A stretch of 64,000 nucleotides of DNA, taken from assembly GCA_005502875.1 (NCBI GenBank), contig SCMV01000007.1, forward strand, positions 1-64,000, read 5' to 3'. This document shows positions 19,431-59,629 of the stretch, one piece after another (within the stretch, counting starts at the first letter, position 1; the number at the start of each line of letters is the position of its first letter). The notes below the pieces were generated by a model that did no database searches, had not been told where the DNA came from, and saw only the letters and a program-made list of their open reading frames with translations. Made by a program: the position numbers and the translations under genes. This DNA comes from Comamonadaceae bacterium 2PF. GTDB lineage: Bacteria; Pseudomonadota; Gammaproteobacteria; Burkholderiales; Burkholderiaceae_C.

Positions 19431-21140
19431 ATGTCCATGAATGCTGTGACCCCTGAGGCCGCTCCTGTGCTCCATGCGGCCCTGCTGCAAATCAACCCCG
19501 TTGTCGGCGACCTGGCCGGCAACGCTCGCCTCATCACCGAGGCGAGCCGCCAAGCCTACGCCGAAGGCGCCCGCCTGGTGGTGACGCCGGAAATGGCCCT
19601 GTGCGGCTACCCCCCGGAAGACCTGCTGCTTCGTCCCGCCTTCCTGCGGGCGTGTGAAGCGGCTTTGTCTCAGCTCGCAGCCGACCTGGCCGACCTGAGC
19701 GGCCTGACGCTCATCATCGGGCATCCGCAGCGCCAGCGCGACGAAGGCGTGCGCACCCGCTCGCACGCCGTTGCGCGCCTGCTCAACGCCGCCAGCGTGA
19801 TCCAGGGCGGCCAGGTGGTGGGCACCTACGCCAAGCGAGAGTTGCCCAACTACCAGGTCTTCGACGAACGCCGTTACTTCGTCAGCGGTCGCGAAGCGGG
19901 CCTGCAGCCCCTGGTGGTGGACGCCGATGGCTGGAAGGTGGGCGTGCTCATCTGCGAAGACGCCTGGTTCGAAGAGCCTGCCCAGGCTGCAGCGGCGGCC
20001 GGTGCCCAGGCCCTGGTCGTGCTCAACGCCTCGCCCTTCCACGCCGGCAAACTGGCCGAACGCGAGCAGCGCATGGGCGAGCGCGCGCGCCAGGTTCGCC
20101 TGCCGTTGTTGTACGCCCACCTCGTGGGGGGGCAGGACGAGGTCGTTTTCGATGGCGCCTCGTTCGCGGTCGATGCGTCGGGGCAGGTCATGGCCCGCGC
20201 GCCGAGCTTCGAGCTCGCCACGCTGCACGTGCGTGTCCAGCTCGGTGGACACGTCGGCGGGGCCATGGCGGCGCCGCTGTCGCCCGAAGCCGAAATCTGG
20301 CAGGCCCTGGTCACCGGCGTGCGCGACTACCTGGGCAAGAACGGCTTCCCGGGTGCGATCATCGGCCTGTCCGGTGGCATCGACTCGGCCCTGGTGCTGG
20401 CGATCGCGGTCGATGCGCTGGGTGCCGACAAGGTGCGCACCGTGATGATGCCGTCCCCCTACACCGCCGACATCTCCTGGATCGACGCACGTGACATGGC
20501 CGATCGCCTGGGCGTGCGGCACGACGAGATCGCCATCGCGCCCGAGTTCGAGGCTTTCAAGGCTTCGCTCGCGCCCCTGTTCGTTGGCAGAGCCGAGGAC
20601 ACCACCGAAGAAAACATCCAGGCCCGCATCCGCGGCACCCTGCTCATGGCCCTGTCCAACAAGACTGGCGCCATCGTGTTGACCACGGGCAACAAGAGCG
20701 AGATGGCCACGGGCTACTGCACGCTCTACGGCGACATGGCCGGGGGCTTTGCCGTCATCAAGGACCTGGCCAAGACCCTGGTGTACCGCCTTTCGCGTTG
20801 GCGCAACGCCCAGGCTGCGGCCGCAGGCCTTGTCGAGCCCATTCCCGAGCGCATCATCACGCGCCCGCCCTCGGCCGAGCTGCGCCCCGACCAGACCGAC
20901 CAGGACAGCCTGCCCGAATACGACGTGCTCGACGCCATCCTCGAGCGCTACATGGAGCAGGACCAGTCCATCGAGCAGATCGTGGCCGCTGGCTTTGCCC
21001 CAGCCGATGTCGACAAGGTCACCCGCCTCATCAAGGTCAACGAGTACAAGCGTCGACAGGCCCCCATCGGCATCCGCATCACACACCGAGCCTTTGGACG
21101 AGATTGGCGTTATCCCATCACCTCTCGCTTTCGCGCATGA
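19431..21140 (+). CDS. nadE: glutamine-dependent NAD+ synthase
   Basis: A 569-residue two-domain enzyme that amidates nicotinate adenine dinucleotide to NAD+, the last step of NAD synthesis. The N-terminal nitrilase-type glutaminase (residues ~13-265) shows its Glu-Lys-Cys residues in CGYPPEDLLLR, KRELPNYQVF and LICEDAWF. The C-terminal synthetase has the PP-loop LSGGIDSAL (~312) and the late KSEMATGY and PSAELRPDQTDQDSLPEYD. It starts at 19431, 43 bases from the divergent DUF482 start, and is followed by glnB, a common betaproteobacterial order. Confidence 0.97.
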   Translation: MSMNAVTPEAAPVLHAALLQINPVVGDLAGNARLITEASRQAYAEGARLVVTPEMALCGYPPEDLLLRPAFLRACEAALSQLAADLADLSGLTLIIGHPQRQRDEGVRTRSHAVARLLNAASVIQGGQVVGTYAKRELPNYQVFDERRYFVSGREAGLQPLVVDADGWKVGVLICEDAWFEEPAQAAAAAGAQALVVLNASPFHAGKLAEREQRMGERARQVRLPLLYAHLVGGQDEVVFDGASFAVDASGQVMARAPSFELATLHVRVQLGGHVGGAMAAPLSPEAEIWQALVTGVRDYLGKNGFPGAIIGLSGGIDSALVLAIAVDALGADKVRTVMMPSPYTADISWIDARDMADRLGVRHDEIAIAPEFEAFKASLAPLFVGRAEDTTEENIQARIRGTLLMALSNKTGAIVLTTGNKSEMATGYCTLYGDMAGGFAVIKDLAKTLVYRLSRWRNAQAAAAGLVEPIPERIITRPPSAELRPDQTDQDSLPEYDVLDAILERYMEQDQSIEQIVAAGFAPADVDKVTRLIKVNEYKRRQAPIGIRITHRAFGRDWRYPITSRFRA

Positions 21141-49443: not shown

Positions 49444-50172
49444 TCAGCTTCGCTTGCGGAACACCAGGTCCCACACGCCGTGGCCGAGCTTCAGGCCGCG
49501 GTTTTCAAACTTCGTCAGCGGGCGGTAAGCCGGTTTTTCAGCGTAGCCCTCGGCGGTGTTGACGAGGTCGGGGTCGGCACCCAACACCTCGAGCATCTGC
49601 TGGGCGTAAGGCTCCCAGTCGGTCGCGCAGTGGATGTAGCCACCAGGCGCCAGGTGCCGCACCAGGTCTGCCACGAAGGGGGCCTGGATGAGCCGGCGTT
49701 TGTTGTGGCGCTTCTTGTGCCAGGGATCGGGGAAGTAGACGTGCACGCCAGCGAGCGACCCCGGTCGGATCATGTGCTCGAGCACCTCCACGGCGTCGTG
49801 CTGGACGATTCGCAGGTTGGTCAGGCCGCGCTCGCCGACTTGCTTGAGCAGGGAGCCAACGCCCGGTTCGTGCACCTCGCAACCGATGAAATCGGTGTCC
49901 CGCAGGGTGTCTGCGATCTTGGCCGTGGCGTCGCCCATGCCAAAACCGATCTCCAGCACCACGGGCGCCGTGCGGCCAAACACGGTCGGGAAGTCCAGGG
50001 GCTGGGCGGTGTAGGGCAGCACGAAGCGCGGGCCCAGTTCGCTCAGCGCCTTGGCCTGGCCTTCGGTGGTTCGGCCAGCCCGCATCACGAAGCTTCGGAT
50101 GCTGCGGGGGTGGGCCACTTCGGGAGGGGTGCTGCCTTCAGGCGGGCAATCTTGCTCGTTTGGGGAGGTCAT
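49444..50172 (-). CDS. trmB: tRNA (guanine-46-N7)-methyltransferase
   Basis: A 242-residue SAM-dependent enzyme that forms m7G46 in tRNA variable loops. The SAM-binding motif is [16 protein letters not shown] (~residues 64-79), and the TrmB signature is [18 protein letters not shown] (~145-162). The N-terminal ~25 residues are variable and contain acidic and proline-rich sequence. Single gene, with a start near 50172 and no evident operon partner. Confidence 0.96.
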
Positions 50173-50336
50173 GTCCGTATTTTAGGGTTGGGGACAGCCC
50201 TGATGCCAATTGGCCAGGGTGTGCAGCCTGCCCGTGACGCAATTGACGGATCTCCACCTGGCCTTGAAACAGGCTGTGTTTTCCATGGCTGCTTCTGAGA
50301 TGCTTGCTTTCAACAGAACACGCACCGGAGTCCACC

Positions 50337-51086
50337 ATGGCATCGATCACCTGCTTCACCCGCAAAGGCCTGCTTGCGACGAGCCTCTCGCTTGGCGCAT
50401 CGGCGGCCATGGCTTTGCCGATCACCATCCCCACGAGCTTCATCGATGCCGAAGCCACCTTCAGCTTCAATTCAGACACAGCCGACCTGATGAGCGTGCT
50501 GGGCATCGGCGTTTCGGCCTTGGGCAACTCGGTGGACGACGGCTCGCACTGGAATTTTGCGATGCCCGTGACGCAGGTGTCGCTGGACGTGTCGCTGTTC
50601 AAGCTCAAGCCGCTGTCAGGTGCTGCGTCGGGCTCCGGTCTGCTGATCTACAACACCGAAAGCGGTGGGGCGCTGTCGCTGGCGAACTTCGGGCTGGACT
50701 TCAAGCGCAACGTGCTGACGGCCGACCTGGGAACCGTTGACGGCAAGATCTCCAAGTCTTTCGATGTGTTCAACTTCTCGGTCACCAAGGGCTTGCACCT
50801 GTCCACCAGCGGTGGGCTGTCGATGCAGATGCAGCTCGACAACATGATGCTGACCCAGCAGGCTCAGACGGCCTTCACTTGGTCGCTGGCCCTGGATGAA
50901 ATCGCCCAGGCTGGCCTGCCGACGCTGAATTTCGGTTCGCTGGGCGTCGACATCAACCCCTCTCTTCGCTTTGGGCTGTCGAGCAAGCCGCTGGTGTCAG
51001 CGGTTCCCGAGGCGTCCGGCCTTGGCATGCTGGCAGCGGGCATGCTGGCGATCGGTGCGATCACGCGACGCCGCATGAAGGCCTGA
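50337..51086 (+). CDS. PEP-CTERM sorting-signal protein, secreted
   Basis: A 249-residue exported protein. The N-terminal signal peptide (~1-27, ending ASAAMA) is followed by a beta-rich, Gly/Ser-rich, Cys-free body (~28-220). The C-terminus has the tripartite PEP-CTERM signal: VPEAS, a membrane helix (GLGMLAAGMLAIGAI) and a basic tail (TRRRMKA). Exosortase would cleave near the PEP motif during export to the outer surface, usually alongside exopolysaccharide. No exosortase gene is in the window. The mature function is unknown. Confidence 0.88.
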   Translation: MASITCFTRKGLLATSLSLGASAAMALPITIPTSFIDAEATFSFNSDTADLMSVLGIGVSALGNSVDDGSHWNFAMPVTQVSLDVSLFKLKPLSGAASGSGLLIYNTESGGALSLANFGLDFKRNVLTADLGTVDGKISKSFDVFNFSVTKGLHLSTSGGLSMQMQLDNMMLTQQAQTAFTWSLALDEIAQAGLPTLNFGSLGVDINPSLRFGLSSKPLVSAVPEASGLGMLAAGMLAIGAITRRRMKA

Positions 51087-51123: not shown

Positions 51124-51197
51124 GCGGGTGTCGTTCAATGGTAGGACTCTTGCTTCCCAAGCAAATAACGTGGGTTCGATTCCCATCACCCGCTCCA
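51124..51197 (+). tRNA. tRNA-Gly(CCC)
   Basis: Cloverleaf: acceptor GCGGGTG pairs with CACCCGC, D-stem GTTC with GGAC, the anticodon loop is TTCCCAA (anticodon CCC), and the T-loop is TTCGATT in a stem of GTGGG/CCCAT type. The discriminator base is T, and the CCA end is encoded (51195-51197). The top pair of the anticodon stem is a C-A mismatch, which occurs in tRNAs. A strong terminator follows at once. Confidence 0.95.
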
Positions 51198-51257: not shown

Positions 51258-52268
51258 TCAGTCGGCCGGGCGCGGCACCGGGCCGGTCACGGGCTCCATC
51301 AACAACCCTGACCAGTGCAGCGGCGCCGTGGTGCGACGCTTGGCCTCGATGTCCTGGTAGATGAAGCCGGCCTGTTGTTCGCTCACGCCCAGGCATTCGG
51401 CCAGCTTGGCAGCGGGCAAGCCCTGGTTGAGGTGCCACAGCGCGACGTCCATCTCCTTGTACGGCAGGGCGTAATAGAACTCGTCCTGGCCCTGGCTGAG
51501 GCTGTAGGTGTCGGTGGTGGGCGTGGCGTTGCAGATGACCTTGGGCAGCCCCATGTGGCGGGCCAGCGCGTACACCTGGGTCTTGTAGAGGTGGGCGATG
51601 GGCTTGAGGTCGGCGGTGCCATCGCCGTTCTTGACGAAGAAACCCTGGTCGTACTCGACGCGGTTGGGTGTGCCCACCACGGCGTAGTTCAGTCGGTCGG
51701 CGTGGAAGAACTCCAGCGTTTTGCGGATGCGCTGCTTGAAGTTGGTGGCGGCCACGATCTGCAGGTACTCGCGTAGGCCCAGGCGCTGCTCGTGCAGGGG
51801 GCCGTTGCCTGGCTCTTGGACCACCAGCTTGAAGTGGTTGATCTGGCCCTGTGTGCCGCCAGCGATCACGATTTTGTTCTTCCAGCCTTCGCCATAAGCC
51901 GGGAAGACCGCGCGGATGGCTTCGTCGCGCCAGCGGTAGCAGCCGATGGCCTCGAGCGTGGGGGCGATGTCTTCGACCGTGTGGCGGATGCCCAGGTGAT
52001 CGGCCAGCAGGCGACCTTTGATCGAGCTGTCGGAGGACGAATCTCGCTCAGGCATCAGCAGGCCAAACACCTTGTCGGGGCCCAGGGCACGCACGGCCAG
52101 CGCTGCGCAGACCGAGCTGTCGATGCCGCCTGACATGGCCACAACCAGCCCGCGGCGTTTGAGGTGCAGGCGCATCAGCTCGCGGATCTTGCTGGTGATG
52201 CGGGTGATCTCGGCGTCGCGATCGAAGTCCAGCAGGGTGTCGATCAGGGTGTCGATGGATGGGGGCAT
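51258..52268 (-). CDS. divergent NadE-like (ammonia-type) amidating synthetase
   Basis: A 336-residue NAD-synthase-fold protein with no glutaminase domain. The ATP PP-loop SGGIDS is intact (46-51), as are N176/K178/R180 (TNFKQRIR), VVGTPNRVEYDQGFF and NGDGTADLKPI. It differs from canonical NadE (~275 residues): extra sequence at ~120-170, and the late PTADL block reads ATPTTDTYSLSQGQDEF. It should adenylate and amidate a carboxylate. Because the window already has a full nadE, and this gene lies in a biosynthetic cluster with an AMP-ligase 72 bases upstream, a specialised substrate is likely. Confidence 0.88.
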   Translation of the reverse strand: MPPSIDTLIDTLLDFDRDAEITRITSKIRELMRLHLKRRGLVVAMSGGIDSSVCAALAVRALGPDKVFGLLMPERDSSSDSSIKGRLLADHLGIRHTVEDIAPTLEAIGCYRWRDEAIRAVFPAYGEGWKNKIVIAGGTQGQINHFKLVVQEPGNGPLHEQRLGLREYLQIVAATNFKQRIRKTLEFFHADRLNYAVVGTPNRVEYDQGFFVKNGDGTADLKPIAHLYKTQVYALARHMGLPKVICNATPTTDTYSLSQGQDEFYYALPYKEMDVALWHLNQGLPAAKLAECLGVSEQQAGFIYQDIEAKRRTTAPLHWSGLLMEPVTGPVPRPAD

Positions 52269-52340
52269 GGCGATGGCTTTCCCTGGATTGGAATGGCTGG
52301 CTGAGGTGGATGGGGTGTCGGGCGGCAGCTCAGGTGCTGA

Positions 52341-53786
52341 TCAGGTGCCGATCAGGTGTTTTTGCACCTTGCCCGAGGCCGTTCGGGGCAGGGTGTCGAA
52401 ATAGTCGACCTGCTTGGGTGCTTTGTACAGGGCCAGGTGCTCGCGGCAATGGCGCTGGATGTCTCGCGTGAGCTGGGGCAGTGGCGGGTGACCTGGGGCC
52501 GGGATCACGCAGGCGCGAACCACCTCGCCCAGCAGTTCGTCGGGCAGGGGCACCACGGCGCACTCGCTGACGCCCGGCACCGCTTGGATGCAGTTTTCGA
52601 TTTCGTGAGGTGACACGCGGTGCGCGCCCACCTTCAGGATCTCGCGACTGCGCCCGTGCAGGAACAGGAAGCCCTCGGCATCGAGGTGACCGATGTCACC
52701 GGTGTGCAGCCAGCCGTCCACCAGGGTGCTCGCGGTGTCGTCGGGCGAGTCCCAGTAGCCGAGCATGATGTTGGGCCCGCGTGCCCAGATGTCTCCGACC
52801 TCGCCTGAAGGCGTGGTCCGACCCTGGGCATCGCGCACCTGCAGCTCGACGCCGGGCAGTGCCAGGCCCACCGAGCCCGGCCTGCCTCGTCGCTGTGCCG
52901 GGCTCAGCGTGGTCAGGCGCGAGCACGCTTCGGTTTGCCCGTACATCACCCAGAAACCCACCTCGGGCAGCGCTTGCTGCAGGCGCTCGATGCGCGCCGG
53001 GTCCATGGGGCCTCCGGCCTGAGCCATGTGGCGCAACGCAGGCAGGGGGTGAGCGTTCAGCTGACCTCGCTCGAGCAACAGGTAAAACGACGAGGGCACA
53101 CCGTAGAAGTGCGTGGCCGCGACCTGGGCCATGCGCTGCACGATGCGCTGCGGGTACATGAAGCTGTTCTCCAGCACCAGCGTGGCACCCAGGCTCAGGT
53201 GGGTGTGCAGCACCGAGCTGCCAAAGGCGTAGTGAAAGGGCAGCACGCACAGGGTCACGTCGTCGGGTGACATCGGCAAAGTCTGCTGCACCGCCAGGGT
53301 GTTGGCCGCCAAGGCGCCGTGGCTGAGCATCACGCCCTTGGGCTGACCGGTTGTGCCCGACGTGAAGACCAGGCTGGCGAGGGCCTGGGGCTCAAGCGAG
53401 CAAGGCGCTGCATTGGCCGGTGGTGGCGGGGGCGCCTCGGGCAGTGCCCGCCAGCACAGGCGGGCCTGACAGGCCTGGGTCAGCTGGGCGATGTCAGCGG
53501 GCTTGAGGGCAGGGTTCAGCGCGACGACCACGCCACCCGCCCACCACGTGGCGTAAATGGCCACGGCCAGCTCGGCGCTGTTGTCCATCACCAGGGCCAC
53601 GCGATCGCCGGGTTGAATCAGCGACTTCAAGTGCTCACCCTGGGCTGCAATCTGACTGGCAAGCGCGTCAAAAGAGGTGCAGCGCTCTGCCTCAATGAAA
53701 GCAGGGTGCGCGGGTCGCTTGGCCGCCTGGTGGAGCAGGCGCGTCAACAGCAGCGGGGCGGAGGTGGGGTTCTGGGCGCCGGACAT
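52341..53786 (-). CDS. AMP-forming acyl/aryl-acid ligase (ANL superfamily)
   Basis: A 481-residue adenylate-forming enzyme. The phosphate loop FTSGTTGQPKG (~155), YGQTEACSR (~300), LHTGDIGHLDAEGF (~370) and the C-terminal lysine region PRTASGKVQKHL are intact. It would activate a carboxylic acid to acyl-AMP and load CoA or one of the two acyl carrier proteins across the divergent promoter. The ATG at 53786 was chosen; a GTG at 53819 is an alternative. The exosortase A systems I know of carry a comparable ligase next to an asparagine-synthase homologue. Confidence 0.9.
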   Translation of the reverse strand: MSGAQNPTSAPLLLTRLLHQAAKRPAHPAFIEAERCTSFDALASQIAAQGEHLKSLIQPGDRVALVMDNSAELAVAIYATWWAGGVVVALNPALKPADIAQLTQACQARLCWRALPEAPPPPPANAAPCSLEPQALASLVFTSGTTGQPKGVMLSHGALAANTLAVQQTLPMSPDDVTLCVLPFHYAFGSSVLHTHLSLGATLVLENSFMYPQRIVQRMAQVAATHFYGVPSSFYLLLERGQLNAHPLPALRHMAQAGGPMDPARIERLQQALPEVGFWVMYGQTEACSRLTTLSPAQRRGRPGSVGLALPGVELQVRDAQGRTTPSGEVGDIWARGPNIMLGYWDSPDDTASTLVDGWLHTGDIGHLDAEGFLFLHGRSREILKVGAHRVSPHEIENCIQAVPGVSECAVVPLPDELLGEVVRACVIPAPGHPPLPQLTRDIQRHCREHLALYKAPKQVDYFDTLPRTASGKVQKHLIGT

Positions 53787-53890
53787 GACCGGTTGCGATG
53801 GAGCGATGCAATTCCACACAGTCTAGGGGGACTCCATGCCCTTGCGCGCCTTATCATCGTCCGGCAGGACTTGATTCAAGGGGGGTGTGC

Positions 53891-55879
53891 ATGTGCGGTG
53901 TCGCGGGGGTGCTGGATTGGCGAGCTCAGGCCAATCCGGTGTGGTCTCCTGACGACGGGCTGCTCAGGCGCATGGCCGACACCCTCCACCACCGGGGGCC
54001 AGACGGTCGCGGCTTCCTGAAGCGTCCGGAGCTGGGCTTGGCGCACACCCGCCTGGCCATCGTCGACCTGGCCGGCGGGGATCAACCCATTTTCAACGAA
54101 GACGGCAGCATCGCTGTCGTCTTCAATGGCGAGATCTTCAACCACATCGAGCTGCGCGAAGAGCTGATCGCGCAAGGCCATCGTTTTGCCACCCGCTCCG
54201 ACACCGAGGTCATCGTCCACCTCTACGAGCAGCATGGCGACGACTTCGTGCACCACCTCAACGGGCAGTTCGCCATCGTGCTGTGGGACGAACGACGCCA
54301 GCGACTGCTGCTGGTGCGCGATCGCGTCGGCATCGCGCCGCTTTTCTACCGCATTGGTGAAACCGACGACGAGCACCAACTGATCTTCGGCTCCGAGGTC
54401 AAGGCGCTCTTGCCGGCCCTCGTGCGCAGCCCGCGCGTCAACCGCCGCGCGCTCGATCAGGTCTTCACCTGCTGGACGCCGGTGGGTGCCGAGACCCTGT
54501 TCGAAGGCATCTGGTCGCTCGAGCCCGGCACCATGCTGATCGCCGAGCCCGACCGCGACAAGCACCTGCACGCCACCGTGCGTCGCTACTGGGACTGGCG
54601 CTTCCCGCTGTCGCCCGACGATTGTCAGCAAGGCTCTGACGAAGACCTGCTCGAAGAGCTGCGCGCCACCCTGGTCGACGCCACCCGCATCCGCCTGCGC
54701 GCCGACGTGCCCGTGGGTGCCTACCTCTCCGGTGGGCTCGATTCGTCGATCCTGACCAGCGTCATCCACCACGAGACCAACGCGCCGCTGCGCACCTTCT
54801 CGATCGGATTCGAAGACGCTGCGCTCGATGAGAGCGCCCAGCAGCGCGAGATGATCGAGTTCCTGCACGCGCGTCACAGCCGCATCGAATGCCGCCAGGA
54901 AGACGTCGGCCAAGGGCTGATGGACACCGTCTGGCATGCCGAATGCGCGGTGTTGCGCACAGCGCCTGTGCCCATGCGCCTGCTCTCGGGCCTGGTGCGC
55001 CGCCAGGGCTACAAGGTGGTGCTCACGGGCGAGGGCGCGGACGAGGTTTTTGGTGGCTACGACCTGTTCAAGGAGTCGCAGCTGCGACAGTTCTGGGCGC
55101 GCGAGCCGCATTCGGCTGCCAGGCCCCAGTTGTTGCAGCGCCTGTACCCGTGGCTGGCTGGCCAGTCCGGGCGCTCCGATGCCTTCATGCGCGGTTTTTA
55201 TGGCGCTGGCCTTGAAGACCCGGATGACCTGCTGTTCTCGCATGGCCCGCGCTTTGACACCACCCGCAAGGCGCGGATGTTCCTGCTCGACCCCAGGCCC
55301 GATCACGAGTCGCTGGACGACATCCGGGCGCTCATGCCCCGAGAAGCCAGCCGCTGGCACCCCCTGGCGCGCGCTCAGTACCTCGAGGCCCGCCTGCTGA
55401 TGGGCAACTACCTGCTGTCCTCGCAGGGCGACCGCATGCTGATGGCCAACGGGGTGGAAGGGCGCTTTCCCTACCTGGACCACCGCGTCATCGAACTGGC
55501 CAACCGCCTGCCCCCGCGCCTGAAAATGCGCGGGCTGCGCGAAAAGATCGGGCTGCGCCAGGCCATGGCCCAGTACCTGCCGGAGCGCACGCGCACCCGC
55601 CACAAGCAGCCCTACCGCGCCCCCGATGCCGCAGCCCTGTTCGATCCCGCATCGGGCCAACCCCTGCCGTTCGTGGCCGACCTGCTCTCGCCCGAGAGCC
55701 TGACCCGATCGGCCTGCTTCGAGCACACCAGGGTGGGTTTGCTGCTGCGCAAGGCCGCGCGCCAGCCCGAAGCCCTCGGCACCCGCGACAATCAGGCCCT
55801 GATCGGCATGGTCACGCTGCAAGCCTGGCACCGCCTGTTCATCGAATCCCACCACCCCATGCGTCCCCTGGCGCACTGA
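53891..55879 (+). CDS. asnB: asparagine synthase (glutamine-hydrolysing) family amidotransferase
   Basis: A 662-residue class II amidotransferase. The N-terminal Ntn domain begins with catalytic Cys2 (MCGVAGVLDW) and has HRGPDGRG, RLAIVDL and FNGEIFNH. The C-terminal synthetase has SGGLDSSI (~295) and GEGADEVFGGYDLF. It transfers glutamine-derived ammonia to an adenylated carboxylate. It heads the plus-strand unit with an ACP 18 bases downstream, which suggests a pathway-specific acyl or sugar-acid substrate rather than housekeeping asparagine. A 104-base gap separates it from the divergent ligase. Confidence 0.93.
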   Translation: MCGVAGVLDWRAQANPVWSPDDGLLRRMADTLHHRGPDGRGFLKRPELGLAHTRLAIVDLAGGDQPIFNEDGSIAVVFNGEIFNHIELREELIAQGHRFATRSDTEVIVHLYEQHGDDFVHHLNGQFAIVLWDERRQRLLLVRDRVGIAPLFYRIGETDDEHQLIFGSEVKALLPALVRSPRVNRRALDQVFTCWTPVGAETLFEGIWSLEPGTMLIAEPDRDKHLHATVRRYWDWRFPLSPDDCQQGSDEDLLEELRATLVDATRIRLRADVPVGAYLSGGLDSSILTSVIHHETNAPLRTFSIGFEDAALDESAQQREMIEFLHARHSRIECRQEDVGQGLMDTVWHAECAVLRTAPVPMRLLSGLVRRQGYKVVLTGEGADEVFGGYDLFKESQLRQFWAREPHSAARPQLLQRLYPWLAGQSGRSDAFMRGFYGAGLEDPDDLLFSHGPRFDTTRKARMFLLDPRPDHESLDDIRALMPREASRWHPLARAQYLEARLLMGNYLLSSQGDRMLMANGVEGRFPYLDHRVIELANRLPPRLKMRGLREKIGLRQAMAQYLPERTRTRHKQPYRAPDAAALFDPASGQPLPFVADLLSPESLTRSACFEHTRVGLLLRKAARQPEALGTRDNQALIGMVTLQAWHRLFIESHHPMRPLAH

Positions 55880-55897
55880 AACCCGAGGAGCCCCTCC

Positions 55898-56152
55898 GTG
55901 ACCGCCCGTGCAGCCCTTCGACGCTATGTCCTGGAAAACCACCTGTTCACCGACGACGATGCCGCCCTGAAGGACGCCGACTCTTTCCTGGAGACCGGCA
56001 TCCTCGACTCGACCGGCATCATGGAGTTGATCCTCTTCGTCGAAGAAACCTTCCAGCTCAAGGTGACCGACGACGAGATGGCGCCCGAGAACCTCGACTC
56101 CATCGACAGTCTGGTGGCCTACGTGGAGCGCAAGCAGGCCGCTGCGGCCTGA
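55898..56152 (+). CDS. acyl carrier protein (first of two)
   Basis: An 84-residue acidic four-helix carrier protein from a GTG start with GAGGAG upstream. The phosphopantetheine Ser38 is in GILDSTGIMELI, and the C-terminal helix reads LDSIDSLVAYVERK. It would carry the acid activated by the AMP-ligase or the ketosynthase product as a thioester. It lies 18 bases after asnB and 16 before the ketosynthase gene. Its sequence is quite different from the second carrier protein, suggesting separate loads. Confidence 0.92.
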   Translation: MTARAALRRYVLENHLFTDDDAALKDADSFLETGILDSTGIMELILFVEETFQLKVTDDEMAPENLDSIDSLVAYVERKQAAAA

Positions 56153-56168
56153 TCGCCGGGAGCGCACC

Positions 56169-57266
56169 GTGAGCTTCAGCCGCATCGATGGGTTCCGCAT
56201 CGCCGGGGTGAGCACCTGCGTGCCGCCCACCCGGGTCGACAACCTTGACCTGGGTGAGCGCTACGGCGCCGAGGACGTCCGCAAAGTGGTCTCGATGGCC
56301 GGTGTGCGCCACCGCCACGTGGTGGGCGATGAGCTCACCGCGGTTGACCTGTGCACCGAGGCCGCGCGCCGCCTGCTGGACCAGTTGGGCTGGGCGCCTG
56401 AGAGCATCACCGGCCTGATCATGGTCACGCAGTCGCCTGACCACTTCCTGCCTTCTTCGGCCTGCGTGGTGCACGCCAAGCTGGGCCTGCCGGTTGAATG
56501 CGCGGCCTTCGACATGGGCTTGGGCTGCTCTGGCTACCCCTACGGGCTCTACATCGCCGCGACCATGCTCAAGGCCGGTGGTCAGCAGCGCATCCTCATG
56601 CTGCACGGTGAAACGCCCAGCCGATTCGTCCACCCAGGCGATCACGCCACCACCTTGTTGTTCGGCGATGCCGGCTCGGCAACGGCGCTGGAGGCCGCGC
56701 CTGCTGCGTCGCCTGTGCCGGCCGCCGCCGATGCCGAGCCCGCCAGCTTCTGCCTGTTCACCGACGGCAGCGGCGCCGATGGCCTGATCATCCGTGGCGG
56801 TGCTTTCCGCGACCGCACGCCCGCCGATCCGCGCGACCTGTGCGTGCGCATGGACGGTGCGGGCATCTTCAACTTCACCATCAAGCGCGTGCCGCCGCTG
56901 GTCAACGACACGCTGGCCTTCGCGGGCCTGGCGGTGCCGGACATCGACGCCTACCTGTTTCACCAGTCCAACCGCTTCATCATGAAGCACCTGATGAAAA
57001 AGTGTGGCCTGCCCGAAGAGCGCGTGCCTTTCACCATCGAAGACACGGGCAATTGCGGTGGTCCATCGGTGGCGGTGACCCTGACGCGCGCGCTGGCCGA
57101 GCGCGAACGCGACAGGCCCTTGCGCCTGATGCTGCTGGGCTATGGCGTGGGCCTGTCGTGGTCATCAGCCATCGTCATGCTGCCTGCAGACGCCGTGTTG
57201 TTGCATGGTGTCTGTGCCCCGAGCCCCGCCACCGCAACGCCCGATCCTTCGGAAACCAAGCCATGA
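56169..57266 (+). CDS. FabH-like beta-ketoacyl-ACP synthase III
   Basis: A 365-residue thiolase-fold ketosynthase with a full Cys-His-Asn triad: Cys120 (GLGCSGYPYG), His265 (LFHQSNRF) and Asn295 (DTGNCGGPS). It normally condenses an acyl-CoA or acyl-ACP starter with malonyl-ACP. GTG start. A ~25-residue Ala/Pro insertion (~176-195) and a ~30-residue C-terminal tail make it longer than housekeeping FabH (~320). It is set between two ACP genes; its stop overlaps the second ACP start by four bases (ATGA). Confidence 0.92.
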   Translation: MSFSRIDGFRIAGVSTCVPPTRVDNLDLGERYGAEDVRKVVSMAGVRHRHVVGDELTAVDLCTEAARRLLDQLGWAPESITGLIMVTQSPDHFLPSSACVVHAKLGLPVECAAFDMGLGCSGYPYGLYIAATMLKAGGQQRILMLHGETPSRFVHPGDHATTLLFGDAGSATALEAAPAASPVPAAADAEPASFCLFTDGSGADGLIIRGGAFRDRTPADPRDLCVRMDGAGIFNFTIKRVPPLVNDTLAFAGLAVPDIDAYLFHQSNRFIMKHLMKKCGLPEERVPFTIEDTGNCGGPSVAVTLTRALAERERDRPLRLMLLGYGVGLSWSSAIVMLPADAVLLHGVCAPSPATATPDPSETKP

Positions 57267-57517
57267 GCCAACGCACCCTCACCACCCAGGAAGCCCTGGA
57301 GATGATGGCGGACGCCTTCAACGAGCCGATTGAAAACCTGTTGCCCGACACCCCTCGCGACAGCATCCCGGGCTGGGACTCGATGGGCGCGCTCATGTTG
57401 ATCGCCGAGCTGGACGAGCGCCTGGGGCTGGAGCTGCAGGCCGAGGTCTCGCGCGAGATGAAGCGGGTGCAGCACGTGCTGGATTTCCTGGCCGCGAACG
57501 GGGCGTTGGCCCCTTGA
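57263..57517 (+). CDS. acyl carrier protein (second of two)
   Basis: An 84-residue carrier protein. The attachment Ser40 is in PGWDSMGALMLI, closer to PKS/NRPS-type carrier motifs (W-D-S) than the first ACP's L-D-S. A start within the ketosynthase stop gives coupled translation. Likely partners are the ketosynthase and the GNAT-like protein 31 bases downstream. Confidence 0.91.
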   Translation: MSQRTLTTQEALEMMADAFNEPIENLLPDTPRDSIPGWDSMGALMLIAELDERLGLELQAEVSREMKRVQHVLDFLAANGALAP

Positions 57518-57548
57518 TGCGAGGCGCGATCGCACCCGGGGGCCAGGC

Positions 57549-58691
57549 TTGAGCACACGCGGCGCGTTGCCTATCGAGAAAACCGCCCGCCTGGTGGCGC
57601 GGGCCCTGGGCTGCACGCCTGGGGAGCTCGCCGCTGGCTTGCGCCCGGCCCGCACCGATGAGTTGCCTGCTGTGCTGGAGCTGCGCCGCCAGGTGATCGG
57701 CGCGGACCTGCACTGGGACGACGAGGCCTACCTGCGCTGGCGATACCAGTTCGGTGCCAAGGGCGAAGGCTTGGCAACCTGTTGGGTCTGCACCCTTGGC
57801 GATCGGGTGTTGGGCATGATCGGGGTCGAGCCGCTGCGCCTGCAGGCAGGCGAGCAGGCCTGTGACGCCCACGTGACGATGGACATCATGGTGCGGCCCG
57901 ACCTCGACGGCGTGGGCTTGGGCGTGTGGATCAACCAGGCCATTTGCGAGCGCTTGGGCTGCGTGCTGGCGGTTGGCTCCAACCCGAACTCGCGCGGTGT
58001 CATCGCGCGCACCTTCGAGCCCCTGCCTGATCGCCGCAGCCACGCCCACCCGCTGAACTTCGGCCACTTCATGGCCAAGCGCCTGTCGCTGGGCTGGCTG
58101 GCGGCCCTGGCTTCATGGGCTGCCACCACCGGCATGGTCCTGTTTCGGGTGTCGACGCTTTGGCTGGCCTCCTCGACGGTGCAGGTCAGCCGGGCCGAGG
58201 TGCTGGGGCCGGAAGTCGAATCGCTGCTCGCGCGAGCGCAACGTGCTCGCCGGGTCGAGGTGATCCGCTCGCCGACGGGGCTCAGCCGCCGCCTGCTCCG
58301 CAACCCCCGCAGCCCGGCGCAGGTCTGGCTGGCACGCCGTGGCGGCGAGGTGGTGGGGCTGATGGCCGTTCGCCGCACGCAGATCGCAGAACAACGCCAC
58401 GCCCTTCAGATCATGGACGTGGTGCTCGACAGGCACCATGAGGACGTGGCGCTCAGGGCCTTGCTGGCGCGCGTGGCCGCATGGGGCTTCAGGGGCGGCG
58501 CCGAGTACCTGAGCGTGACGCTTTACGACCCCGAGCTTGAAGCGCGCTTTTCTCGCCTGTTTTTCAGGCACCAGCCTCAGCCCTACGAAACCATGGCCTG
58601 GTCATGCCCCGAGGGGCCCTTCAAGGACGCGGTTTTGGCCCGCTCGGCCTGGTCCCTGATGGACATCCACACCGACCGCGACCAGGGCTGA
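57549..58691 (+). CDS. GNAT-fold acyltransferase-like protein of the ACP cluster
   Basis: A 380-residue protein from a TTG start. The N-terminal half (~30-170) has a GNAT-like core (LPAVLELRRQVIGADLHWDD, TMDIMVRPDLDGVGLGVWI), and a second half (~220-360) has another GNAT-like pattern (RRGGEVVGLMAVRRT, MDVVLDRHHEDVALRALL). A hydrophobic stretch around 188-205 could associate with the membrane. It may transfer an acyl group from an ACP to an amine or sugar. Last gene of the plus-strand unit; it converges with the dioxygenase at an 8-base gap. Confidence 0.78.
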   Translation: MSTRGALPIEKTARLVARALGCTPGELAAGLRPARTDELPAVLELRRQVIGADLHWDDEAYLRWRYQFGAKGEGLATCWVCTLGDRVLGMIGVEPLRLQAGEQACDAHVTMDIMVRPDLDGVGLGVWINQAICERLGCVLAVGSNPNSRGVIARTFEPLPDRRSHAHPLNFGHFMAKRLSLGWLAALASWAATTGMVLFRVSTLWLASSTVQVSRAEVLGPEVESLLARAQRARRVEVIRSPTGLSRRLLRNPRSPAQVWLARRGGEVVGLMAVRRTQIAEQRHALQIMDVVLDRHHEDVALRALLARVAAWGFRGGAEYLSVTLYDPELEARFSRLFFRHQPQPYETMAWSCPEGPFKDAVLARSAWSLMDIHTDRDQG

Positions 58692-58699
58692 TCACCTGG

Positions 58700-59629
58700 T
58701 CACCAGAAGATCGCCAGCAGCAGCCCGATGATCAGCACCCACTTGCCGACGTAGTAGCCGGTGCGGTTCGTCGCCTTGAATTGCTTGGCCTTTTCGCGCA
58801 GCTGGTAGGCCACGCCGAAGAACTTGTTGATGCCGCCGACCTGCTCGCCTTGCTCGTTCTGCGTGGCCGAGGCCTTCATGACGATGCCTGCGAACACCTT
58901 GTTGACCCAGCGCACCACGGGCGTGTAGACCGGCCGCTCCACGTCGGCAAACAAGATGATGCGCGGCTGCTGCGTGGTGTTGGCAGCATGGTGGATGTAG
59001 GTCTCGTCGAACATCACGACCTCGCCGTCCCTCCAGTGGTAGCGCTGGCCATCGACCTCGATGTAGCAGCCTGGGTCGTTCGGTGTGATCAGGCCCAGGT
59101 GGTAGCGCAGCGAGCCTGCATACGGGTCGCGGTGCTTGACCAGGGTCGCGCCCGGCGGCAGCGAGGCGAACATGGCGGCCTTGATGCCGGGGATCTGGTT
59201 GAGCAGGGCCACCGTCTTGGGGCAGCGCTCGGCCGCCGAGGGTTGATCCACGCCGTACCACTTCAGGTAAAAGCGCTTCCAGCCCGTGCGGAAAAAAGAG
59301 TTGAAGCCGATGTCGTTGTAGCCATCGGCGGCCTTGATGCGGCCCCCCTCATCCAGCGCCAGGGCCTCCTCGCGGATCACCTGCCAGTTCTCCTGCAGCA
59401 CCTTGAGCTCAGGGAACTGCTTGGGATCCAGGTAGGGCTGGCTGCCCACTTTGGAGAACAGCACCATCAGCGAGTTGAAGGGCGCGATCAGCACCGTGAA
59501 GTCGGTCAGCGCGCGCACCAGGCCGAAGCGCACCTTGCCGCGAAAGTGGGCGTGCAGCGCGGCGGCGATGAAGGTGATCAGCACCCAGTGGCGGGGGGCC
59601 AGGGGCCAGATTTCTTGGACGAGGCTCAT
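58700..59629 (-). CDS. LpxO-like aspartyl/asparaginyl beta-hydroxylase family dioxygenase
   Basis: A 309-residue Fe(II)/2-oxoglutarate dioxygenase with a membrane helix at each end (~15-32 and ~290-308), as in LpxO, which 2-hydroxylates the acyl chain of lipid A. Conserved residues lie in VKHRDPYAGSLRYHLGL (~150), GEVVMFDETYIHHAANTT (~205) and PRIILFADVERP. The position beside the ACP cluster raises the chance that it modifies that pathway's lipid product; equally it may be an independent lipid A enzyme. The start at 59629 precedes the first helix directly. Confidence 0.88.
   Translation of the reverse strand: MSLVQEIWPLAPRHWVLITFIAAALHAHFRGKVRFGLVRALTDFTVLIAPFNSLMVLFSKVGSQPYLDPKQFPELKVLQENWQVIREEALALDEGGRIKAADGYNDIGFNSFFRTGWKRFYLKWYGVDQPSAAERCPKTVALLNQIPGIKAAMFASLPPGATLVKHRDPYAGSLRYHLGLITPNDPGCYIEVDGQRYHWRDGEVVMFDETYIHHAANTTQQPRIILFADVERPVYTPVVRWVNKVFAGIVMKASATQNEQGEQVGGINKFFGVAYQLREKAKQFKATNRTGYYVGKWVLIIGLLLAIFW

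What the first reader, a model, noticed from the sequence alone, without database searches (positions are those of the whole stretch)
51258..59629. Candidate undescribed pathway: ligase, NadE-like, AsnB, two ACPs, KAS III, GNAT and dioxygenase
Two divergent units share a 104-base promoter region. All key catalytic residues are intact: ligase P-loop, AsnB Cys2 and PP-loop, ketosynthase Cys120/His265/Asn295, and both ACP serines. A coherent but hypothetical scheme: the ligase loads an acid on an ACP, the ketosynthase adds two carbons, AsnB and/or the NadE-like protein amidates a carboxylate, the GNAT protein transfers the acyl group, and the LpxO-like enzyme may hydroxylate it. There is no modular synthase, transporter or glycosyltransferase, so the product may decorate a lipid or glycan made elsewhere. 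Two different ammonia-ligase folds beside two ACPs is the striking point.
Basis: inference. Interest (0 to 1): 0.8.

Follow-up and report, generated by a model that had tools for sequence, protein, structure and literature searches.

The report
Conserved amide-acyl decoration gene cassette
Next to a tRNA gene in an Aquabacterium bacterium sits a real, widely conserved but apparently undescribed set of genes, labelled as NAD and asparagine synthesis, that most likely builds a small amide-bearing acyl group on a carrier protein and attaches it to something else, perhaps a surface sugar.

Summary
In detail: all eight genes lie where stated, with the named catalytic residues and the 104-base gap. 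The pathway looks real, but its borders differ. The recurring unit is asnB, ACP, adenylate-forming ligase and NadE-like protein: of the 80 closest NadE-like loci, 76 match the ligase, 75 the ACP, 70 asnB. An even draw of Pseudomonadota genomes gave 14 other loci: ligase and ACP in 14, asnB in 13. A tandem-GNAT (N-myristoyltransferase-like fold) is in reach in 31 of 80. The ketosynthase and second ACP form a separable elongation module; some genomes add ketoreductases and a FabA-like dehydratase. The modules meet in several gene orders; in the window, module-1 genes of gammaproteobacterial type sit beside a resident kas-acp2-gnat. The LpxO-like gene is only a neighbour. Stand-alone copies sit on rhizobial plasmids, including S. 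meliloti pSymB. Exosortases do not track the cassette (2 of 15). Most likely function: load a carboxylic acid on an ACP, convert a carboxylate to an amide, optionally extend it, then transfer it to an amine, often on a surface polysaccharide. Gene content and order are shown; the chemistry is inferred. Ten paper searches showed no description.

The parts
51258..52268 (-). NadE-like ammonia ligase (NadE2), module 1
   Evidence: NF002048/PRK00876 470 bits over cut-off 313; NadE fold; 336 aa, SGGIDS loop
52341..53786 (-). class I adenylate-forming ligase, module 1
   Evidence: PF00501 and PF13193 over cut-offs; SGTTGQPKG
53787..53890 (.). 104-base divergent intergenic region
53891..55879 (+). AsnB-type glutamine-dependent amidotransferase, module 1
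   Evidence: TIGR01536 471 bits, cut-off 267; Cys2 and SGGLDS; only full-length PF00733 match in the genome
55898..56152 (+). acyl carrier protein 1, module 1
   Evidence: PF00550 21.2 v cut-off 20.8; Ser38
56169..57266 (+). ketosynthase III, module 2 (elongation)
   Evidence: PF08541 and PF08545; Cys120, His265, Asn295
57263..57517 (+). acyl carrier protein 2, module 2
   Evidence: overlaps KAS by 4 bases; Ser40 in DSMG; Pfam hit below cut-off
57549..58691 (+). tandem-GNAT acyltransferase (TTG start, exact start uncertain)
   Evidence: PF00583 22.2 v cut-off 20.7; predicted fold pLDDT 85.1, N-myristoyltransferase/Eis-like
58700..59629 (-). LpxO-like dioxygenase: flanking neighbour, not part of the pathway
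   Evidence: PF05118; distribution and cassette-free sites
51124..51197 (+). tRNA-Gly(ccc), flanks the cassette
   Evidence: ARAGORN

Best explanation
The genes form a carrier-protein-dependent acyl decoration pathway made of two modules. Module 1 (asnB, ACP1, ligase, NadE-like): the ligase adenylates a small carboxylic acid, probably with a second carboxylate, and loads it on ACP1; AsnB (with glutamine) and the NadE-like enzyme (with ammonia) turn carboxylates into primary amides. The tandem-GNAT then moves the carrier-bound acyl group onto an amine, most often an amino sugar of a surface polysaccharide. In some genomes a PrmC/HemK-like enzyme may N-methylate the amide. Module 2 (KAS III, ACP2) is an optional elongator: KAS III joins the starter, possibly from ACP1, to malonyl-ACP2; elsewhere dedicated ketoreductases and a dehydratase would process the product, while in Aquabacterium housekeeping FabG/FabZ would have to. 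Shown: recurring gene content and order, repeated joining of the modules, intact catalytic motifs, and predicted GNAT and NadE folds. Inferred: substrates, order of reactions, the two amide steps, the acceptor.
For: Content of the 80 closest NadE-like loci and of 14 loci from an even draw of 398 Pseudomonadota genomes (ligase and ACP1 14 of 14, asnB 13 of 14; one of the 14, L187, is the same contig as L119 of the 80). asnB-ACP-ligase-nadE operons in the four annotated plasmid records read. The GNAT superfamily spans Burkholderiales, Gammaproteobacteria and Rhizobiales and has the fold of amine acyltransferases. Of 18 KAS loci found with KAS alone (12, window included; 6 more), 14 have module-1 genes adjacent, 3 have module 1 (one partial) elsewhere in the genome, 1 has none found. 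Five relatives (four complete, one cut by a contig end) read AAC(3)-like, SDR, ACP2, FabA-like, SDR, KAS, asnB, ligase, ACP1, nadE (Pfam checked on L180 only). The L074 locus has both modules between XrtA-type polysaccharide deacetylase and FemAB genes. 24 of 80 loci match XrtA-type polysaccharide queries. WbpS, an AsnB homologue, makes a uronamide in a surface glycan (PMC7468200).
Against: None of the polysaccharide queries matched in window 45-64 kb, and 56 of 80 loci matched none of the XrtA-type queries, though some of these match glycosyltransferase- or deacetylase-like queries and some are short. The S. meliloti pSymB copy has no glycan gene annotated within 12 kb. Exosortase genomes are not enriched (2 of 15, Fisher p 0.75). 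The GNAT superfamily was found in only 31 of 80 loci and 6 of 14 even-draw loci. One relative (L036) lacks the ligase and four loci keep only kas-acp2-gnat. Module 1 occurs without KAS in G019 and G010. No ACP loading or amide product has been observed.
Confidence: 0.5

Rival explanations
1. The same enzymes make a free or membrane small molecule (an amide-bearing acyl-amino compound or aminolipid) rather than a glycan substituent; the GNAT joins the acyl group to a free amino acid or polyamine.
For: Compact four- or five-gene operons on rhizobial plasmids; GNAT fold resembles N-myristoyltransferase; the best NCBIfam neighbours of ACP1 are ornithine-lipid and cispentacin carrier proteins, though far under cut-off (49 v 130 and 47 v 80 bits). 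An ABC-transporter ATPase-like family occurs in 7 of the 80 loci (my reading of the ORF cluster). GNAT N-acyl amino acid synthases linked to PEP-CTERM systems are known (title in the reference list of PMC11631085).
Against: Many gammaproteobacterial copies sit among polysaccharide genes; P0007 matches no NCBIfam model at E 0.01, hence no N-acyl amino acid synthase model.
Confidence: 0.35
2. The elongated acyl group ends in lipid A or another envelope lipid and is hydroxylated by the adjacent LpxO-like enzyme.
For: The LpxO-like gene lies 8 bases from the GNAT and next to it in the window and the 7 other layout A and B loci.
Against: LpxO orthologues occur without the cassette and away from it; no lpxO match in the held stretches of the four layout-C loci or of the ten KAS loci outside the genus.
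Confidence: 0.05
3. Housekeeping: AsnB makes asparagine, NadE-like makes NAD, and the ligase, ACPs and KAS are unrelated fatty-acid paralogues brought together by chance.
For: Annotated relatives bear these names. AsnB is the genome's only full-length one.
Against: A separate 569-aa NadE-type ORF lies in the same window (19431-21140), 15 of 37 genus members show no AsnB at E 1e-30 (five of these genomes are under 90% complete), and the set recurs in distant taxa and on plasmids.
Confidence: 0.04

Closest known systems
P. gingivalis Wbp/Vim linking-sugar pathway (WbpS, VimA), PMC7468200 (abstract, passages and one section read)
   Same: AsnB-type amidotransferase making a uronamide and a GNAT/FemAB-like enzyme thought to acylate a freed sugar amine; relatives lie beside exosortase and deacetylase genes.
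   Different: No ligase, ACP, NadE-like protein or ketosynthase appears in the passages read; our AsnB falls below the cut-off of TIGR03108, the family to which the paper assigns WbpS relatives.
XrtA/PEP-CTERM exopolysaccharide loci (TIGR03006, 03007, 03018, 03019, 03097)
   Same: Module 1 sits among such genes in a number of Gammaproteobacteria.
   Different: The cassette does not track exosortases; no such gene matched beside the window copy; ligase 296 v cut-off 592 bits for TIGR03098, AsnB 393 v 817 for TIGR03108.
Flagellin or O-antigen acyl islands with ACP and KAS III (recalled, not tested)
   Same: Dedicated ACP plus KAS III plus reductase supplying an N-acyl group to an amino sugar.
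   Different: No NadE-like or AsnB genes that I recall.
Glutarimide and tetracycline malonamate starters with AsnB-type enzymes (recalled)
   Same: AsnB-type amidation of a dicarboxylate used as a starter unit.
   Different: No modular or iterative synthase here, and a second, NadE-type amide ligase.
GNAT N-acyl amino acid synthases linked to PEP-CTERM (Craig 2011; title only, seen)
   Same: GNAT acyltransferases near PEP-CTERM genes (from the title; use of acyl-ACP is recalled).
   Different: P0007 matches no NCBIfam model.

Membership tests
NAD synthetase (NadE) | PP-loop SGGxDS and NadE fold | tested here: met
   SGGIDS at 46; the top Foldseek rows are NadE structures, 2e18_A TM 0.82 by target, 0.63 by query
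NAD synthetase (NadE) | scores over an NCBIfam NAD synthase model | tested here: met
   NF002048 470 v 313 and TIGR00552 136 v 64 reached; NF010587 163 v 255, NF001979 83 v 250 and NF010588 79 v 479 not
NAD synthetase (NadE) | same core without an extra element (my own criterion) | tested here: not met
   47-54 extra residues between the two matched blocks in the three alignments shown (2e18, 3fiu, 3p52); the stretch is modelled with three strands
NAD synthetase (NadE) | makes NAD from deamido-NAD | not testable with these tools
   a second NadE-type ORF at 19431-21140 makes it unnecessary but not excluded
AsnB glutamine-hydrolysing amidotransferase | Cys2 glutaminase, PP-loop, TIGR01536 over cut-off | tested here: met
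XrtA amidotransferase TIGR03108 (WbpS type) | score over curated cut-off | tested here: not met
   392.6 v 816.9 bits
XrtA-associated ligase TIGR03098 | score over curated cut-off | tested here: not met
   296.3 v 592.35 bits
XrtA/PEP-CTERM system | co-distribution with exosortase | tested here: not met
   2 of 15 NadE-like genomes v 78 of 398 overall, at E 1e-15 for PF09721
FabH/KAS III | Cys-His-Asn triad and ACP_syn_III domains | tested here: met
FabH/KAS III | housekeeping FabH | tested here: not met
   below PRK09352 (216 v 249) and TIGR00747 (183 v 292) cut-offs; the genome has another KAS III at C30
GNAT N-acyltransferase | GNAT fold, tandem domains | tested here: met
   PF00583 22.2 v 20.7; 1iyl_A Z 21.6, rmsd 4.7, 312 aligned; 2ozg Z 20.6, rmsd 3.3, 292 aligned
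LpxO lipid A hydroxylase (neighbour gene) | score over NF033391 cut-off | tested here: not met
   447 v 500 bits, though over nearly the whole model

The most novel reading that the evidence does not exclude
The cassette is an undescribed, widely spread biosynthetic system in which a NAD-synthetase-like enzyme with an extra three-stranded element works as an amide ligase on a carrier-protein-bound acyl group, beside an AsnB, giving a doubly processed primary (or N-methyl) amide acyl unit that a myristoyltransferase-like GNAT attaches to an amine; an optional mini fatty-acid synthase extends it by two carbons.
Probability: 0.35. Interest if true: 0.85.

Novelty: new variant of a known kind. Interest (0 to 1): 0.62.

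Why it matters
The set occurs in many genomes under housekeeping names: 467 NadE-like relatives in one scan, of which only the best 80 were examined (the rest may include ordinary NadE), and 116 plasmid records with a NadE-like match, of which four annotated ones were read. If the reading is right, it is a common route to an amide-bearing acyl substituent, a repurposing of NAD synthetase, and it can be tested at once in Sinorhizobium meliloti, where the four genes lie in a row on pSymB. It may also bear on the unknown chemistry of exopolysaccharides in exosortase loci.

Tried and rejected
Exosortase dependence: suggested by loci among XrtA-type genes, not borne out by the 398-genome draw. A NadE2-HemK gene fusion in L043, suggested by a 635-residue length, proved false: a stop separates them. 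LpxO as a member: rejected; one genome, G024, has lpxO with none of the searched neighbours in 19 kb (L205). AsnB as WbpS/TIGR03108: below cut-off. KAS on plasmids: no match at E 1e-90. Mesorhizobium loti asnB paper (PMC3538637, passages) and PMC12337268 (one passage): of no use for this cassette. Paper searches whose listings (titles and abstract starts) showed no description of the set. In one search the kas hit in L081 (20% identity) and the weak gnat hits in L079 and L096 are not orthologues by identity; the kas count in those 80 loci is then 11, not 12. NaAD and aspartate pocket residues were not compared: no coordinates were at hand.

Rows dropped: G008 and G010 from the 37-genome table, told above; loci L045, L046, L048, L087, L098 and L120 were left out as duplicates; sequences with internal stops or low coverage were skipped by the scripts.

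Full report
Where it is. The window is contig C77 (bases 1-64000) of a 4.18-Mb genome in 95 contigs. The genus is Aquabacterium by named relatives: A. parvum B6 carries the same locus with a 97% identical NadE-like protein (L046). Upstream lie an ORF whose product is TrmB-like (49444-50172) and one with a PEP-CTERM-like end (50304-51086; both my reading of the ORFs), and tRNA-Gly (51124-51197); downstream the LpxO-like gene and an aldehyde-dehydrogenase-like ORF.

The observation. The LpxO-like gene is a third unit, convergent with the GNAT and 8 bases away.

Natural variation in the genus. KAS orthologues (73-96% identical to ours; the other KAS III matches are about 27-34%) occur in 12 of 37 genus members, our own included. 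Three layouts appear. A (window, L034, L035, L036): the window arrangement, with the ligase missing in L036. B (L037-L040): only kas-acp2-gnat at the same place. C (L041-L044): one collinear operon asnB-ligase-acp1-nadE2-(HemK-like in three of four)-kas-acp2-gnat, elsewhere in the genome, with no lpxO in reach. NadE-like is intact in 11 of 37. Of the four B genomes, two have asnB-ligase-acp1-nadE2-hemK elsewhere (L149, L150), one has asnB and a ligase fragment at a contig edge (L211), one has none found (G023, 88% complete). Module 1 without KAS: G019, with a GNAT of the same superfamily (L151), and G010, cut by a contig end (L153). G008 holds broken remains (L152). Sites without the cassette show trmB, PEP-CTERM-like genes and lpxO close together (L206, L207, L208) or trmB and lpxO (L209).

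Module 1 is widespread. A scan of named genomes with the NadE-like alignment confirmed 467 relatives at E 1e-3, of which the best 80 were fetched. Within the held flanks, 76 of 80 match the ligase, 75 ACP1 and 70 asnB. These 80 are the closest relatives, not an even sample. An even draw of 398 Pseudomonadota genomes gave 15 with NadE-like at E 1e-90; the 14 other than our own all have ligase and ACP1, and 13 of 14 have asnB within about 10 kb. One of these (L187) is the same contig as L119 of the 80. Plasmids: 116 records have a match at E 1e-60 (Sinorhizobium 76, Azospirillum 12, Ensifer 9, Shinella 8, Mesorhizobium 7, others 4). Five were fetched; the four with annotation read asnB, ACP, ligase, nadE: S. 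meliloti pSymB, M. ciceri pMESCI01, Nitratireductor, Shinella (the fifth has no annotation there).

The GNAT. The 380-aa protein has little sequence annotation. An iterated profile search joins it to three other neighbour families, including the 370-aa 'hypothetical protein' upstream of asnB in Nitratireductor and Shinella and beside a HemK gene in Mesorhizobium; profile comparison supports this (E 3.9e-6, probability 87%, 323 columns). 31 of 80 loci and 6 of 14 even-draw loci have a member in reach; counting FemAB too, 36 of 80. The predicted model (mean pLDDT 85.1) matches N-myristoyltransferases and Eis-like tandem GNATs (Z 20-21.6). A shared fold shows no function; it is consistent with moving acyl groups to amines.

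The NadE-like protein. It is over the cut-off of NF002048 and has the NadE fold, but carries 47-54 extra residues between the two matched halves in the three alignments shown, a stretch modelled with three strands. The window holds another NadE-type ORF of 569 aa at 19431-21140. An additional NAD enzyme is therefore unnecessary, though NAD synthesis by this protein is not excluded.

AsnB. It is the only full-length Asn_synthase in the genome. 15 of 37 genus members show none at E 1e-30 (five of them are under 90% complete), and the genome has no AsnRS over the model cut-off; GatCAB was not tested. So a housekeeping asparagine role looks unlikely.

Module 2. KAS orthologues at E 1e-90 are in 9 of 399 family genomes and 1 of 398 phylum genomes (our own). 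Of 18 KAS loci found with KAS alone (12, 6 more), 14 have module-1 genes adjacent, 3 have module 1 elsewhere (one partial), 1 has none found. In L180-L184 the order is AAC(3)-like acyltransferase, SDR, ACP2, FabA-like dehydratase, SDR, KAS, asnB, ligase, ACP1, nadE, with L181 cut by the contig end (Pfam on L180). L185 and L074 have an SDR between KAS and ACP2, and L074 also a dehydratase and a second SDR. L085, L092, L115 and the Aquabacterium loci show KAS and ACP2 without them. So the full module looks like a small type II fatty-acid-like elongator; the window keeps KAS and ACP2 only.

Assembly history. In trees of nadE2, asnB and ligase the layout-A genes form a clade (support 1.0) that groups with Gammaproteobacteria (0.87 for nadE2; for asnB and ligase first with L189, 0.81 and 0.95), apart from layout C. 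The group holding layouts C and the L149-L151 copies is weakly supported for nadE2 (0.43) and ligase (0.41), and for asnB (0.95) also holds Gammaproteobacteria; trees are midpoint-rooted. In trees of kas, acp2 and gnat, layout A groups with layout B (0.90, 0.95 and 1.0); for gnat, A is not a clade apart from B, L152 falls inside A+B+C, and for acp2 L115 does. The simplest reading is that foreign module-1 genes joined a resident kas-acp2-gnat. Repeated joining of the same parts in different orders is the best evidence that they work together.

Polysaccharide context. Neighbours in the 80 loci include XrtA-type deacetylase, chain-length, kinase and FemAB proteins over their cut-offs (the TIGR03016 and TIGR03097 examples are below); 24 of 80 loci match at least one XrtA-type query (similarity only, no random control). 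L074 places both modules between deacetylase and FemAB. L195 lies among glycosyltransferase-, flippase- and aminotransferase-like ORFs (my reading of ORFs). Against: exosortase genomes are not enriched, and the pSymB copy has no glycan gene annotated near it.

Mechanism and what is known. The closest parallel I saw in print is the P. gingivalis linking sugar, where WbpS (AsnB-type) gives a uronamide and VimA (GNAT-like) is thought to acylate a freed amine; the authors note relatives beside exosortases (PMC7468200, abstract, passages and one section read). No ligase, ACP or NadE-like protein appears in the passages read. A PrmC/HemK-like gene recurs near the cassette (8 of 80 loci; 6 of 14 even-draw loci); as PrmC methylates a glutamine amide (established knowledge), this hints at a primary amide in the product, but is inference. 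Ten searches of the open-access library listed no paper describing this gene set; subscription papers are not covered.

Verdict.

Noticed in passing
50304-51086; L041 2673-3404; L044 16072-16665: ORFs with a PEP-CTERM-like C-terminus (my reading) lie beside the cassette in layouts A, B and C, although those of C differ from that of A and B; such genes may be common in the genus, so this may be chance.
   Followed up: partly
L060 5604-6515 and 17 other loci of the 80: A secreted-looking protein with an FGHQSVG motif and no Pfam match lies near module 1 in 18 of 80 loci; only one of these also has the GNAT.
   Followed up: partly
L193 2359-5112: 918-aa protein with AMP-binding and thioesterase domains and a weak carrier match beside module 1; ligase-like matches at similar places in L194 and L197.
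   Followed up: no
L036 7146-7256: A layout-A relative lacks the ligase cleanly: nadE2 and asnB are head to head with about 110 bases between.
   Followed up: no
L152: Degenerate cassette remains with NadE-like broken across frames in G008.
   Followed up: no
L202 1268-4643: TniB/TniQ/Mu-type transposition genes lie just upstream of the cassette on a Nitratireductor plasmid, a possible route of spread.
   Followed up: no
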